Positions 47,256 to 51,169 of a stretch of 64,000 nt of DNA are shown here, piece by piece. Numbering within the stretch: the stretch's first letter is position 1; each line of letters begins with the position of its first letter. Under the pieces are notes generated by a model. That model did not search any database. It had not been told where the DNA came from and saw nothing but the letters and a program-made list of their open reading frames with translations. The position numbers and the translations under genes are program-made. This DNA is from Deltaproteobacteria bacterium (GTDB lineage: Bacteria; Desulfobacterota; Binatia; UBA9968; JAJDTQ01): the NCBI GenBank assembly GCA_026712905.1, contig JAPOPM010000163.1, forward strand, positions 1 through 64,000. Direction: 5' to 3'.

Positions 47256-48020
47256 ATGGCCAAGAAACAACCAGGCAAGGCCAGCGCGCGTCAGATCGGG
47301 CAACTCAGGAAAACCGTGGCGCTGGCCACGCGCATCCTCTTCCACCAGGGACTCGCCGACTACCACGGCCACGTGAGTGCGCGCATCCCCGGCACCAATC
47401 GCCTGCTCATCAAGCCGGTGCTCGCACCCCTCGGGTCCATCCGCGCCAAGGACCTCATGGAAGTGGACATCGACGACTACATGGAGAACTGCGAAGCCAA
47501 CTGGGCCAAGGCCGGAAACCAGAAGGCGGTCATCGATCTCAAGATCCCGCCCCGTGAAACCATGATCCACGCGGCCATCCTGAATGCGCGCCCGGACCTC
47601 AACTCGGTGGTGCACACGCACCAGCCCCTGGCCACGGCCTTCGCCATCGCCGGCGTGCCCATCCGTCCCATCTACAACCAGGCCTCGGCGTTCGCCCCGG
47701 AAACGCCCATCTTCCACAGCCCCCGGCTCATCTACACGCTCCAGGACGGCGCCGAGCTGGTGGCCACGCTGGGCGACCGCATGGCCGTGCTCATGCAGGG
47801 TCACGGCATGACCACGGTGGGCGACTGTGTCGAGGAGGCCACGAGCCACGCCGTCTACCTGGAGCGCACCGCCTACATGCAGTGGGTGGCCAGCAGCATC
47901 GGCGAGGCGCCCTCCATGCCGGACCGGAACATCGCCGTCATGGGTGCCACGAACCGCGGCCGCGCCCATCACGCGTTCGCCTATTTCTCCGGCCTGCTGC
48001 CGAACGACATGAAGGACTAG
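47256..48020 (+). CDS. Class II aldolase/adducin family protein
   Basis: 254 aa. YHGHVSARIPGTNRLLIKP, the zinc-binding HTHQPLATAF and the third His in MQGHGMTTVG match the L-fuculose-phosphate aldolase/adducin fold. The lone-gene context and absence of a sugar-phosphate cluster leave aldolase or decarboxylase activity open. GAGGAGG precedes the ATG. Its TAG stop coincides with the left border of palindromic element copy 2. Confidence 0.9.
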   Translation: MAKKQPGKASARQIGQLRKTVALATRILFHQGLADYHGHVSARIPGTNRLLIKPVLAPLGSIRAKDLMEVDIDDYMENCEANWAKAGNQKAVIDLKIPPRETMIHAAILNARPDLNSVVHTHQPLATAFAIAGVPIRPIYNQASAFAPETPIFHSPRLIYTLQDGAELVATLGDRMAVLMQGHGMTTVGDCVEEATSHAVYLERTAYMQWVASSIGEAPSMPDRNIAVMGATNRGRAHHAFAYFSGLLPNDMKD

Positions 48021-48179
48021 TGTGGTGTCTCACAAATACGCTTATGACTCTGCGGGTCCTTTTGGCCGTCGGCTGCGTTGCTCTTCCTCACGTGGTATTG
48101 GCCACTGCTCGTCATCGCGCCTTGCCGACGACCAAAATGCCCTCGCAGATTCACAAGCGTATTTGTGAGACACCACACT
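48019..48179. mobile_element. 161-bp palindromic element, full copy 2 (MITE-like)
   Basis: Same length as the copy at 29936. The 36-bp arms pair at 34 of 36 positions and begin AGTGTGGTGTCTCAC. The core (about 48055-48143) differs from copy 1 at only a handful of positions. The arms differ from copy 1 at many positions, yet still pair internally. It is flanked on both sides by CTAG (48017-48020 and 48178-48181), which may be a target duplication or part of the element. It separates the aldolase from the second UbiD gene. Confidence 0.8.
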
Positions 48180-48229
48180 AGCGGGCGCCGACAACAACCA
48201 CGAACACCGCACGACAAGGAAGGTGAAGC

Positions 48230-49801
48230 ATGGCCGAAGCGAACAGCGCCGGGTCCGCGGGGACCAGCCGCCCGATTCAAGACCTCCGTGAATGGCTCGA
48301 CCGGGCCGAAGGGGTCAACGAGCTGATCCAGATCGACAAGCCGGTGGACCGCGACGAGGAGATGAGCGCCATCACCTACCTGGTGGCCAAGCAGGAGCCG
48401 TCGCCCGCCATCCTGTTCGAGAACCCCAAGGGGTTCGAGGACAGCGCCATCGGCGCGCGCATGCTGTGGAACATCCTGGGGCCGAGCCCCAAGCGCATCG
48501 CCCTCACCATCGAGGAGCCGCCCGAGACTCCCACGCTGGAGCTGATCCGCCGGCTGAAGGAGAAGATGAAGGACCGCATTCCGCCGCGCGAGATCCCGGC
48601 GGCCCAGGCGCCGGTGTACGAAAACACCCTCGCCGGCGACGACATCGACCTGGAGCAGCTCCCCATCCCGCGCCACTGGCCGCTGGACGGCGGCCGCTAC
48701 GCCGGCACGGCGGACGCGGTGTTCACGCGCGACCCGGACTCCGGCTACCTCAACATCGGCACCTACCGGATGATGCTCCAGGGCAAGAACGAGGTGGGGC
48801 TCTACCTGTCGCCGGGCAAGGACGCGCGCCTGCACATCACCCGCTCCTGGGAGAAGGGCGAGGCCGTGCCCGTGGCCGCGGCCTGGGGCATCGACCCGCT
48901 GTTCATGCTGGTGGGCTCCCAGACCTTCCCCAAGAACGTGTCCGAGTACGAGTTCGCCGGCGGCATCAAGGGCGAAGCCATCCCGGTGGTGCGCGCCGAG
49001 ACCAGCGACCTGTTGCTGCCGGCCAACGCCGAACTGGTGATCGAGGGCGTCATCCGCCCCAATTCCGTCAAGACCGAAGGGCCGTTCGGCGAATTTCCGG
49101 GCTACTACGGCCGGCCCGAGGCGGGCTGTCCGCTGGTGGAGGTCACCCGCGTGCACCATCGCACCCGCCCGGTGCTCACCAACGCCATCATGGCGGACTA
49201 CCCATCGTGCGAGCAGAGCGGCTTCTTCGCCATCATCCGCTCGGCGCGCATCTGGGACGACATGGAGAAGCTCGGCATCCCGGGCGTGCAAGGCGTCTAC
49301 GCCCACCCGGCGGGCGCCGGCGGCTTCGGCATGACGGTCATCAGCCTGGAGCAACGCTACGCCGGTCACGCGGCCCAGTGCCTGGCGCTGGCGGCGCAGG
49401 TACCCGGCGGCGCCTACTACACCAAATGGATCATTGCCGTGGACGAGGACATCGACCCCACGGACATGGACCAGGTGATCTGGGCCATGAGCAGCCGCTC
49501 CAACCCCATCGAGGACATCGACGTGCTGCGCAACACCTGGAGCACGTGGCTGGACCCGACCCAGAACCCGCCGGAGGAGCGGCCCTACGGCTCCAAGGCG
49601 CTCATCAACGCCTGCAAGGAGCACCGCTACCTGCCGGTCTTCTCCAAGCGCACCACCCTGCGCCGGGAGATGTACGACCAGGTGGCGGAACGCTGGAAGG
49701 AACTGGGGCTGCGCGGCACCATACCCACGGTGCGCGCCTTCGAGGAAGACAAAAAGGTCGTGTACCACGAACAGGGCGGATTCGAACCCGGCAAGGAATA
49801 G
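48230..49801 (+). CDS. UbiD family decarboxylase (second member)
   Basis: 523 aa. N-terminal LREWLDRAEGVNELIQIDKPVDRDEEMSAITYL, central PVAAAWGIDPLFMLVG, the GPFGEFPGYYG block with conserved Glu, and C-terminal IIAVDEDIDPTDMDQVIWAM place it in the UbiD superfamily that uses prenylated FMN. AAGGAAGGTG lies before the ATG. It is preceded by the palindromic element rather than an aldolase read-through. It differs enough from the gene at 16497 to suggest a different aromatic or unsaturated acid substrate. Confidence 0.9.
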   Translation: MAEANSAGSAGTSRPIQDLREWLDRAEGVNELIQIDKPVDRDEEMSAITYLVAKQEPSPAILFENPKGFEDSAIGARMLWNILGPSPKRIALTIEEPPETPTLELIRRLKEKMKDRIPPREIPAAQAPVYENTLAGDDIDLEQLPIPRHWPLDGGRYAGTADAVFTRDPDSGYLNIGTYRMMLQGKNEVGLYLSPGKDARLHITRSWEKGEAVPVAAAWGIDPLFMLVGSQTFPKNVSEYEFAGGIKGEAIPVVRAETSDLLLPANAELVIEGVIRPNSVKTEGPFGEFPGYYGRPEAGCPLVEVTRVHHRTRPVLTNAIMADYPSCEQSGFFAIIRSARIWDDMEKLGIPGVQGVYAHPAGAGGFGMTVISLEQRYAGHAAQCLALAAQVPGGAYYTKWIIAVDEDIDPTDMDQVIWAMSSRSNPIEDIDVLRNTWSTWLDPTQNPPEERPYGSKALINACKEHRYLPVFSKRTTLRREMYDQVAERWKELGLRGTIPTVRAFEEDKKVVYHEQGGFEPGKE

Positions 49802-49941
49802 CGGGCCGCGGGCTTGTTGCCCAGGGCACGACCCTGTGATATTGTTGGGCCGGTTTCTGAGTTTGGCCGATCAGTTGTAATTGGCGATCACGCCGTCGGG
49901 GTGCAAGGAACAGGGTTATCGAACCCGGGAATAGGTGTCGG

Positions 49942-50274
49942 ATGGACATTCAAGAGGAAACCAGCGGATCCACGATCGTTGTGGCCCCGAGCGGGCGCGT
50001 TGACGGGTTTACCAGCCCCGAGCTGGAGAAACGCATCTCGGAAATCATCGAGCGCGGCGATCATCGCGTGCTGTTGGACTGCGCCAACATGGACTACATC
50101 AGCAGCGCCGGACTGCGCGTGGTCCTTGTGAGCGCCAAGAAGTGCCAGCAGCAAGGCGGAAAGTTGTCGGTGTGCGCGCTCCAGCCCTCGTGCAAGTCGG
50201 TCATGGAGGTCAGCGGCTTTCTCAACATGCTCGAATACCACGAGACCCGCGATTCAGCCCTCGCCGCGGGATAG
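49942..50274 (+). CDS. STAS domain anti-sigma factor antagonist
   Basis: 110 aa, single STAS domain. The phosphorylatable serine region is MDYISSAGLRVVLVSAKK (Ser54/Ser55). Such proteins switch partner binding through phosphorylation by an anti-sigma kinase; no kinase, phosphatase or sigma gene is adjacent. It starts 15 bases before the GPP34 gene on the same strand, so the two are almost certainly co-expressed. The upstream 140-base gap contains a possible TTGTTG/TGATAT promoter with 17-base spacing. Confidence 0.9.
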   Translation: MDIQEETSGSTIVVAPSGRVDGFTSPELEKRISEIIERGDHRVLLDCANMDYISSAGLRVVLVSAKKCQQQGGKLSVCALQPSCKSVMEVSGFLNMLEYHETRDSALAAG

Positions 50275-50288
50275 GTCGAGGCGACGCC

Positions 50289-50942
50289 ATGCTCACATTC
50301 ACCGAAGAAATCACACTCTTGATGCTGGACGACGATGGGCTGTTCCTGCCCATCCGCGGCGGCGCCGTGGAACACATCCTGATCGGCGCGGTGTTGATGG
50401 ATCTGGCTTTCGCCAACCGCGTCGACACGGACCCCGAGCGGCTCGTGGTCATCGATGCCACGCCTACCGGCAATTCCCTGTTCGACGGCGCGCTGGAGCG
50501 CATCGCCAACTCCGGCGAGAACCTGGACACCAAGGGATGGGTGGAGTTGCTGGCGCGGGAGCAGGCCGCCGCCATTCGCCAGCGAGTCATGGACAACCTC
50601 ATCGAACGCGGCATCATCGAGGCCAAGGACGAGCGCTTCCTGTGGGTGTTCCAGTCGCGGCGCTATCCCACCATCGACGGGCGCGTGGAACGCGGCGTCA
50701 AGCTGCGCATGGAGGACGTACTGCTGTCCGACGACATGCCCGATCCCCGTGACATCGCACTGGTATGCCTCGTCGACGCCTGCGACATCCTCGGCGATCT
50801 TTTCTCGGAGCGGGAGATGGAGCGGGTGCGCCCGCGCATCGAACAGCTCCGCAAGATGGACCTCATCGGCCGCGAGGTCGGCGCCGTCATCGCCGACATC
50901 GAGGAGTCCATCACCATGGCCATGGCCCAGGTGGCGCACTAG
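50289..50942 (+). CDS. GPP34/GOLPH3 family protein
   Basis: 217 aa. LTFTEEITLLMLDDDGLFLP, GAVLMDLAFANRVDTDPERLVVIDATPTGNSLFDGAL and IERGIIEAKDERFLWVFQSRRYP match the GPP34 helical domain; eukaryotic GOLPH3 binds PI4P with this fold. In bacteria such proteins are taken to be membrane- or lipid-associated, with no settled role. Coupling to the STAS gene hints at a membrane signalling switch, which is inference. The ATG at 50289 follows a weak purine stretch. Confidence 0.85.
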   Translation: MLTFTEEITLLMLDDDGLFLPIRGGAVEHILIGAVLMDLAFANRVDTDPERLVVIDATPTGNSLFDGALERIANSGENLDTKGWVELLAREQAAAIRQRVMDNLIERGIIEAKDERFLWVFQSRRYPTIDGRVERGVKLRMEDVLLSDDMPDPRDIALVCLVDACDILGDLFSEREMERVRPRIEQLRKMDLIGREVGAVIADIEESITMAMAQVAH

Positions 50943-51169
50943 CGAGTTTCCGCCAGGCCACTCGAACAGCCCTGCCCGGCGCAACGCGCCTTGTCCACCA
51001 GATCGGGGTCGACCGGCACCGCTTTGCGAGCCCGTGCCCGTACTTCCGGCGCCCCACCCGCTTGCACATTTCCAAGAAAGTTCTACCTCCTCGCCGCTAA
51101 AGTCCGGCTCTCCGTGGTCGATCCTTATTCGTGAGGCCGAAGGAATCTGGCCTCGTCCGAGAGCCGGTG

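What the first reader, a model, noticed from the sequence alone, without database searches (positions are those of the whole stretch)
49942..50942. STAS protein coupled to a GPP34/GOLPH3 protein
A phospho-switch STAS domain and a GPP34 fold that binds phosphoinositide in eukaryotes are 15 bases apart. This pairing suggests a bacterial membrane-lipid signalling unit of unknown output.
Basis: partly seen in the sequence, partly recalled or inferred. Interest (0 to 1): 0.5.

Follow-up and report, generated by a model that had tools for sequence, protein, structure and literature searches.

The report
STAS phospho-switch paired with GOLPH3-like protein
Bacteria of several phyla, apparently many of them sponge symbionts, keep a small phosphorylation-switch protein next to a protein shaped like the Golgi protein GOLPH3, and gene order in some relatives suggests that a sensing pathway uses this pair to control something at the bacterial membrane.

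Summary
In detail: a 110-aa RsbV/SpoIIAA-type STAS gene (49942-50274) lies 14 nt upstream of a 217-aa GPP34 gene (50289-50942). The pair sits at the same place in 9 of 9 genomes of the genus, and STAS lies beside GPP34 in 39 of 79 related loci from several phyla with differing flanks. The switch serine is invariant (48 of 48). The GPP34 model matches GOLPH3 (Z 21.0). Three of GOLPH3's four PI4P ligands are replaced, but the hydrophobic hairpin tip is kept (45 of 48 linked sequences). So phosphoinositide binding is not supported; membrane docking is plausible. At seven places in relatives GPP34 lies next to or near the kinase and/or PP2C phosphatase of a partner-switching system; one has STAS-GPP34-response-regulator/PP2C-kinase-periplasmic binding protein-histidine kinase in one run. 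The window's genome carries the same sensory cassette at another locus. Best reading: GPP34 is a membrane-associated partner, probably the output, of a ligand-sensing partner-switching pathway. Direct STAS-GPP34 binding is inferred; a tethered AlphaFold test gave no support for a rigid complex. This is a new variant of a known kind.

The parts
49942..50274 (+). STAS-domain-only protein, RsbV/SpoIIAA type, 110 aa
   Evidence: PF01740 E 1.6e-18; TIGR00377 above cut-off; nearest PDB sequences SpoIIAA and other anti-sigma factor antagonists
50104..50106 (+). codon of Ser55, aligned with the serine of SpoIIAA that is phosphorylated (that it is phosphorylated in SpoIIAA is recalled)
   Evidence: alignment; Ser in 48 of 48 GPP34-linked STAS
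50275..50288 (+). 14-nt intergenic gap
   Evidence: gaps range from -7 to 51 nt over 40 pairs
50289..50942 (+). GPP34/GOLPH3-fold protein, 217 aa
   Evidence: PF05719 E 1.4e-44; AlphaFold model pLDDT 86.3, pTM 0.84; GOLPH3 9qpq_B Z 21.0, rmsd 2.2 over 196 residues
50577..50579 (+). codon of Arg97, the only one of four GOLPH3 PI4P ligands with an equivalent (R174)
   Evidence: alignment; Arg in 44 of 48 linked sequences
50637..50651 (+). codons of the hydrophobic hairpin tip FLWVF (residues 117-121), aligned with GOLPH3 F194-F197
   Evidence: alignment; strands E113-117 and E121-125 in the model; all five hydrophobic in 45 of 48 STAS-linked and 56 of 125 other sequences

Best explanation
The pair is part of a partner-switching signalling pathway. 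SHOWN by gene order and conservation: the STAS is of the RsbV/SpoIIAA class with an invariant switch serine; it stays beside GPP34 in many lineages; and in a few relatives a STAS-GPP34 pair is encoded together with an RsbW-like kinase, a PP2C phosphatase (with a receiver domain in two of three cases) and, in one, a periplasmic ligand-binding protein and a histidine kinase. INFERRED: a periplasmic ligand is sensed by the binding protein and histidine kinase, which phosphorylates the response-regulator/PP2C. The PP2C dephosphorylates STAS Ser55 and the RsbW-like kinase phosphorylates it. The phosphorylation state decides whether STAS binds GPP34. [quoted passage not shown] In the window's genome the sensory cassette lies on another contig (C77) and would act on the pair in trans.
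For: (1) Conservation: same position in 9 of 9 genus genomes; STAS beside GPP34 in 39 of 79 loci, 14 of 30 loci of 24 of those genomes (overlapping with the 79), 8 of 27 loci of an Alphaproteobacteria sample, 2 of 29 Actinomycetota, 1 of 26 Chloroflexota; flanks differ by clade; both gene orders occur, STAS first in 46 and GPP34 first in 4 of 50 pairs. (2) On a 173-sequence GPP34 tree the STAS link needs 10 changes, at least 6 forced. (3) STAS and GPP34 distances correlate, r 0.894 over 48 pairs, best of 2000 permutations 0.336 (not corrected for species history). (4) Link to the switch machinery at 7 places: L284 STAS-GPP34-RR/PP2C-kinase-PBP-HK; L287 RR/PP2C-GPP34-STAS-kinase; L294 kinase-STAS-GPP34; L286 PP2C-STAS-(ORF without Pfam match)-GPP34; L319 GPP34-RR/PP2C-PBP-HK, no STAS seen; a divergent kinase gene next to the pair in L285 and one about 2.7 kb away in L290 (parts of L319 and L285 by phmmer only). 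(5) The window's genome has kinase-STAS-RR/PP2C-PBP-HK at C77, its RR/PP2C 51.7% identical to L284's. That cassette is in 9 of 9 genus genomes, while none of 30 GPP34-less relatives has a full-length RR/PP2C match at E 1e-20 (6 have partial, PP2C-only matches at 30-45%); 21 of 30 further GPP34-bearing genomes have it at 52-61% identity, 2 of them in two pieces whose second piece is 43% (no GPP34-less genomes in that call). (6) The STAS of L284 and L294 fall inside a 36-row clade made only of GPP34-linked STAS, SH-aLRT 99. (7) Hairpin tip conserved.
Against: Most STAS-GPP34 loci, the window included, have no kinase or phosphatase gene close by: 5 places in 231 partly overlapping loci; 6 of 13 loci with longer flanks, those 13 chosen in part for earlier hits. 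The modules of L286 and L287 are distant kin: L287's RR/PP2C is 25.8% identical to C77's and its STAS 31% to the window's, and that STAS lies in no well-supported group with the window's. Nine of 30 further GPP34-bearing genomes lack a full-length C77-type RR/PP2C, among them four with STAS-GPP34 pairs like the window's: G436, G440, G441, G450. C77 has a STAS of its own, so the cassette may not act on this STAS. Co-occurrence is confounded by shared descent. A tethered STAS-GPP34 read-through model gave pTM 0.62, against 0.84 for GPP34 alone, so no rigid interface is supported (14 rows, artificial tether). The direction (GPP34 as output rather than input) is not shown. Other GPP34 genes have no STAS: 0 of 20 loci in one set, 18 of which are P450 fusions.
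Confidence: 0.6

Rival explanations
1. GPP34 is the input: it senses membrane lipid or membrane state and controls the STAS protein, which then titrates the RsbW-like kinase and so alters the kinase's usual target (a sigma factor or other protein).
For: Canonical SpoIIAA/RsbV act on kinases (PMC8256260, passages); the genome has two strong HATPase_c_2 candidates, at C77 and C178; kinase in one run with the pair in L284, L287, L294; the hairpin is conserved as a possible membrane-contact element.
Against: The module already has dedicated sensors, PBP and HK, in L284 and C77; no sigma-factor match among the neighbours given to Pfam (not every neighbour was scanned).
Confidence: 0.22
2. GPP34 is a scaffold or anchor that only brings the STAS and its kinase/phosphatase to the membrane; the output lies elsewhere.
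For: GPP34 occurs in very different partnerships, including fusions to a P450 and to a stretch that reads as several membrane helices (my reading), as a docking domain would.
Against: In most of the paired loci GPP34 is unfused and no kinase or phosphatase lies near, so it would anchor the STAS alone.
Confidence: 0.1
3. Passive hitch-hiking: the two genes were transferred together and have no functional link.
For: Patchy distribution suggests horizontal transfer: in the sample of the window's phylum only 1 of 394 other genomes had a GPP34 over the cut-off.
Against: At least 6 forced changes of the STAS link on the tree, both gene orders, different flanks, kinase or phosphatase linkage in several groups.
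Confidence: 0.06

Closest known systems
RsbU/RsbV/RsbW and SpoIIE/SpoIIAA/SpoIIAB partner-switching systems
   Same: STAS protein with conserved serine; HATPase_c_2 kinase and/or SpoIIE-type PP2C phosphatase next to it in a few relatives
   Different: A GPP34/GOLPH3-fold protein is built into the module; no sigma-factor match among the neighbours scanned; in L284 and C77 the PP2C carries a receiver domain and is linked to a periplasmic binding protein and a histidine kinase
GOLPH3 / Vps74 (eukaryotic GPP34)
   Same: Same fold over residues 1-199 of 217 (Z 21.0 and 19.4); hydrophobic hairpin tip kept
   Different: PI4P ligands W81, R90 and R171 replaced; the chain starts at the equivalent of residue 59, so GOLPH3's N-terminal region is absent; paired with STAS
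Streptomyces coelicolor SCO4440, GOLPH3-like protein (PMC12402492, title, start of abstract and passages seen)
   Same: A bacterial GPP34 protein, linked there to wall-deficient cell formation
   Different: [quoted passage not shown] no STAS pairing in the passages seen
STAS-only proteins with non-sigma or unknown targets (review PMC8256260, passages)
   Same: Phospho-switched STAS thought to act on targets other than the classical sigma factor; several targets stated as unknown
   Different: No GPP34 or Golgi-type partner in that review (0 occurrences of either word)

Membership tests
GPP34 / GOLPH3 family (PF05719) | Sequence match over the family cut-off | tested here: met
   153 bits against cut-off 29.1
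GPP34 / GOLPH3 family (PF05719) | GOLPH3 fold | tested here: met
   Predicted model: Z 21.0, rmsd 2.2 over 196 residues with 9qpq_B; next unrelated row Z 5.7
GOLPH3-type PI4P reader | W81, R90, R171, R174 ligands | tested here: not met
   Only R174 kept as R97; W81 0, R90 0, R171 3, R174 44 of 48; ligand list from PMC13408441 passages
GOLPH3-type PI4P reader | Hydrophobic membrane-inserting hairpin | tested here: met
   Hairpin in the model; all five tip residues hydrophobic in 45 of 48 linked sequences; insertion itself not tested
GOLPH3-type COPI adaptor | Binding of coatomer and glycosyltransferase tails | not testable with these tools
   Needs binding assays; the N-terminal region is absent (alignments start at chain residue 59-60)
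RsbV/SpoIIAA-type STAS | STAS domain with switch serine | tested here: met
   TIGR00377 above cut-off; Ser55 48 of 48
RsbV/SpoIIAA-type STAS | Candidate kinase and PP2C in the genome | tested here: met
   C77 kinase-STAS-RR/PP2C; that they act on this STAS is not shown
RsbV/SpoIIAA-type STAS | Serine is phosphorylated by the kinase | not testable with these tools
   Needs a kinase assay
Sigma-factor partner switch (Rsb/SpoII) | Sigma factor encoded with the module | tested here: inconclusive
   None among the neighbours of C77, L284, L286, L287, L290 and L294 that were given to Pfam; not every neighbour was scanned, and the genome was not searched for the target

The most novel reading that the evidence does not exclude
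GPP34 proteins in sponge-associated bacteria are a general membrane-docking module for lipid or redox enzymes, and STAS-GPP34 is its signal-controlled form: a ligand-sensing histidine kinase and partner switch whose output is not a sigma factor but a GOLPH3-fold membrane protein, passed between phyla of sponge symbionts.
Probability: 0.35. Interest if true: 0.8.

Novelty: new variant of a known kind. Interest (0 to 1): 0.58.

Why it matters
Several bacterial STAS-only switch proteins have no known target (PMC8256260, passages). A conserved two-gene unit that places a GOLPH3-fold protein beside the switch, and in some genomes beside its kinase, phosphatase and sensor, gives a concrete candidate target and a testable route from a periplasmic signal to the membrane. 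It also gives bacterial GPP34 proteins, of which the searches made here showed very little in print, a first regulatory setting, and may be a signalling trait shared by unrelated sponge-associated bacteria.

Tried and rejected
Translational read-through fusion of STAS and GPP34 was considered because 16 of 40 pairs are in frame; rejected, as frames are mixed (16, 7, 17) and all three stop codons occur.

Phosphoinositide signalling: rejected as stated, three of four PI4P ligands replaced.

The pair as part of a UbiD, EutA or HlyD operon: rejected, since the flanks change between clades while the pair stays. Promoter and terminator scans of 49780-51140 gave only weak matches (1 and 3 found, 0.2 and 0.8 expected).

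Long open frames around GPP34 in L184, L186 and L043 were suspected to be fusions; judged to be GPP34 at the end of a chance open frame (my reading; no P450 match in L184 and L186).

Paper searches for GPP34 or GOLPH3 with sponges, bacteria, Streptomyces, eukaryotic-like proteins, and for STAS partner switching showed in their listings no description of a STAS-GPP34 pair. Listings were partial for (30 of 49; 12 of 74; 12 of 1,708), and the library lacks most subscription journals and preprints. Many 'Gpp34' hits are an unrelated insecticidal protein name.

Limits: the search for related loci kept the best 80 of 472 relatives, so 39 of 79 describes the nearest relatives only. The host habitat of the records was not verified one by one. 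In the tree and pair counts, identical sequences were dropped (186 to 173; linked 50 to 48). L243 is counted as unlinked there because an ORF lies between its STAS and GPP34. Searches used an E-value limit of 1e-20. A structure search of the STAS-GPP34 read-through model was not made.

Full report
WHAT IS THERE. The STAS gene is 49942-50274 (110 aa; PF01740 E 1.6e-18; TIGR00377 above its cut-off) and the GPP34 gene is 50289-50942 (217 aa; PF05719 E 1.4e-44), both on the + strand with a 14-nt gap. Flanking genes are a class II aldolase-family protein, a UbiD-family decarboxylase, a type I HlyD-family protein, a TauD-family protein and EutA.

CONSERVATION IN THE GENUS. A search with the GPP34 protein in 39 related genomes (the window's own included) found it in 9, all of the window's genus, and in none of the other 30. 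In all 9 a STAS lies directly upstream of one copy; 4 of the 9 have a further GPP34 copy (68-71% identical) before the STAS. Two of these genomes (G001, G004) have the pair on contigs of about 4.1-4.2 Mb, which argues against mis-binning. In a sample of 395 genomes of the phylum 3 matched: the window's own, one over the cut-off and one below it.

CONSERVATION ELSEWHERE. A scan of the genome collection found 472 stretches that encode relatives, of which the best 80 were kept, giving 79 loci. STAS is directly upstream in 39 of 79. By NCBI rank these 39 are Alphaproteobacteria 14, Binatota 11, Nitrospinota 5, records filed under Myxococcota 3, Campylobacterota 1, Gammaproteobacteria 1, unplaced 4 (MAG taxonomy as deposited). 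Flanking genes differ from clade to clade. Four loci have two STAS genes before GPP34. The window and the 39 pairs have gaps from -7 to 51 nt. In loci with 1.5-kb flanks from whole genomes, STAS adjoins GPP34 in 14 of 30 (24 genomes of the 79 loci, so overlapping with them), 8 of 27 (Alphaproteobacteria class sample; at least two appear to be places already among the 39), 2 of 29 (Actinomycetota), 1 of 26 (Chloroflexota) and 0 of 20 (a set picked for long open frames, 18 of them GPP34-P450). GPP34 was over the family cut-off in 29 of 385, 30 of 246 and 27 of 251 genomes of the three group samples, the seeded genomes included. On a tree of 173 distinct GPP34 sequences the 48 STAS-linked ones need 10 changes, at least 6 forced (FastTree, 67 of 170 inner branches weak). 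STAS and GPP34 distances correlate at r 0.894 over 48 pairs (not corrected for species history).

LINK TO PARTNER SWITCHING. The most telling evidence is gene order. In L284 (genome G802) one strand reads STAS, GPP34 (4-nt overlap), response-regulator/PP2C, HATPase_c_2 kinase, periplasmic binding protein, HAMP/HisKA protein (cut by the end of the stretch). In L287 (G1297, Chloroflexota sample) it reads response-regulator/PP2C, GPP34, STAS, kinase. L294 (G441) reads kinase, STAS, GPP34, ammonium transporter, second STAS. L286 (G960, Actinomycetota sample) reads PP2C, STAS, an ORF without Pfam match, GPP34. L319 (G742) reads GPP34, response-regulator/PP2C, periplasmic binding protein, histidine kinase, with no STAS or kinase seen in the stretch held (by phmmer and my own profiles). 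L285 has a divergent kinase gene next to the pair and L290 a kinase gene about 2.7 kb away on the other strand (L290's confirmed by Pfam). Against this, only 5 places among 231 partly overlapping loci showed a kinase or PP2C within the stretch held; 6 of 13 loci did with longer flanks, but those 13 were chosen in part for such hits. The L287 module is distant kin: its RR/PP2C is 25.8% identical to C77's and its STAS 31% to the window's.

THE WINDOW'S OWN GENOME. On contig C77 it carries kinase, STAS, response-regulator/PP2C, periplasmic binding protein and histidine kinase in one run: the gene types of the L284 run without GPP34, with the kinase placed first. The RR/PP2C proteins of the two are 51.7% identical, and this is the genome's only SpoIIE-family match. 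The cassette is in 9 of 9 genus genomes with the same order (in L303 the stretch ends before the histidine kinase); of 30 GPP34-less relatives none has a full-length RR/PP2C match at E 1e-20 and 6 have partial, PP2C-only matches at 30-45%. Of 30 further GPP34-bearing genomes all match at E 1e-20 or better; 21 match over both receiver and phosphatase at 52-61% identity (2 of these in two pieces, the second 43%), and 9 do not, among them G436, G440, G441 and G450, which have STAS-GPP34 pairs (no GPP34-less genomes in that call). A second HATPase_c_2 domain lies at the C-terminus of a DUF924 protein on C178. The STAS of L284 and L294 lie within a 36-row clade made only of GPP34-linked STAS (SH-aLRT 99), so the kind of STAS paired with GPP34 in the window is the kind encoded beside kinase or phosphatase there; L287's STAS lies in no well-supported group with it. 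This supports, but does not prove, that the C77 cassette acts on the window pair in trans.

STRUCTURE AND RESIDUES. The GPP34 model (47 sequences, pLDDT 86.3, pTM 0.84) matches GOLPH3 9qpq_B at Z 21.0, rmsd 2.2 over 196 residues, and Vps74 at Z 19.4; the next unrelated row is Z 5.7 (best Foldseek E about 3e-11). GOLPH3's PI4P ligands W81, R90, R171, R174 and its membrane-inserting hairpin 190-201 are as given in PMC13408441 (passages). Only R174 has an equivalent here (R97); across 48 STAS-linked sequences W81 is kept in 0, R90 in 0, R171 in 3, R174 in 44. That paper reports that R90L largely abolishes Golgi localisation. The tip F194-F197 aligns with FLWVF 117-121, all hydrophobic in 45 of 48 linked and 56 of 125 other sequences, in a modelled hairpin. 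So membrane docking is plausible and PI4P reading is not. STAS Ser55 is invariant in 48 of 48. A read-through tether of STAS and GPP34 (14 rows) gave pTM 0.62: inconclusive and, as far as it goes, no support for a rigid complex.

WIDER SETTING. The 24 genomes tested, all picked for a GPP34 locus, have 1 to 8 GPP34 matches each. The family also occurs fused to a P450 (own genome, C28; nearest PDB sequences include CYP51 and CYP120), with a KshA-like Rieske oxygenase nearby in some loci, and with a C-terminal stretch that reads as several membrane helices (my reading) before a multihaem cytochrome c gene (L098; family membership of the rest). The nearest relatives carry labels of the kind jk18x/p16x (31 of 79) or RHO/COS/CAR/APA (21 of 79). 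PMC9531527 names jk18x7 MAGs as from Ircinia sponges; 'p16' does not occur in its main text (passages). PMC8163846 lists Rhopaloeides, Coscinoderma, Carteriospongia and Aplysina hosts (passages); matching those to the labels is my inference. The sponge setting is therefore likely but not verified record by record, and enrichment was not tested.

NOVELTY. In the paper searches made (some listings partial) the only bacterial GOLPH3-like protein that I saw described is Streptomyces SCO4440 (PMC12402492, passages; a second Streptomyces paper, PMC13238533, seen as a listing only). The authors of the first say that such proteins had not been reported in prokaryotes. A STAS-GPP34 unit did not appear in those listings. 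I class it as a new variant of a known kind: a partner-switching system with a GOLPH3-fold partner.

Noticed in passing
G000:C28:41621-42232 (L003, L044): GPP34 fused to a cytochrome P450 (677 aa; nearest PDB sequences include CYP51 and CYP120), divergent from a KshA-like Rieske oxygenase and near a class II aldolase-family gene and another GPP34. Of 20 further loci fetched, 18 have GPP34 followed by P450, and 6 of these have a KshA-like gene nearby (L187, L188, L189, L193, L195, L199; weak hit in L198); also genus locus L046.
   Followed up: partly
L098:6001-7179 and relatives (L099, L101, L102, L106, L107, L108, L114, L118, L132, L140): GPP34 with a C-terminal extension that reads as several membrane helices (six of them inspected). 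A gene of the multihaem cytochrome c cluster follows in 10 of these 11 and one of the Tll0287-like cluster in 8 (Pfam run on L098 only).
   Followed up: partly
window 48017-48063 and 48135-48181: 47-nt inverted repeat, arms 87% complementary and 71 nt apart, at the end of the class II aldolase-family gene; looks like a small mobile or hairpin element.
   Followed up: no
G000:C178:50859-52415 (L147:2860-4416): DUF924 protein with a C-terminal HATPase_c_2 (RsbW-like kinase) domain, an unusual fusion and a second candidate kinase for STAS proteins.
   Followed up: no
L034, L035, L036, L037: Further GPP34 copy (68-71% identical) upstream of the STAS-GPP34 pair in 4 of 9 genus genomes.
   Followed up: no
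L094:8219-8545 (L294:7893-8219): Ammonium transporter gene and a second STAS downstream of kinase-STAS-GPP34.
   Followed up: no
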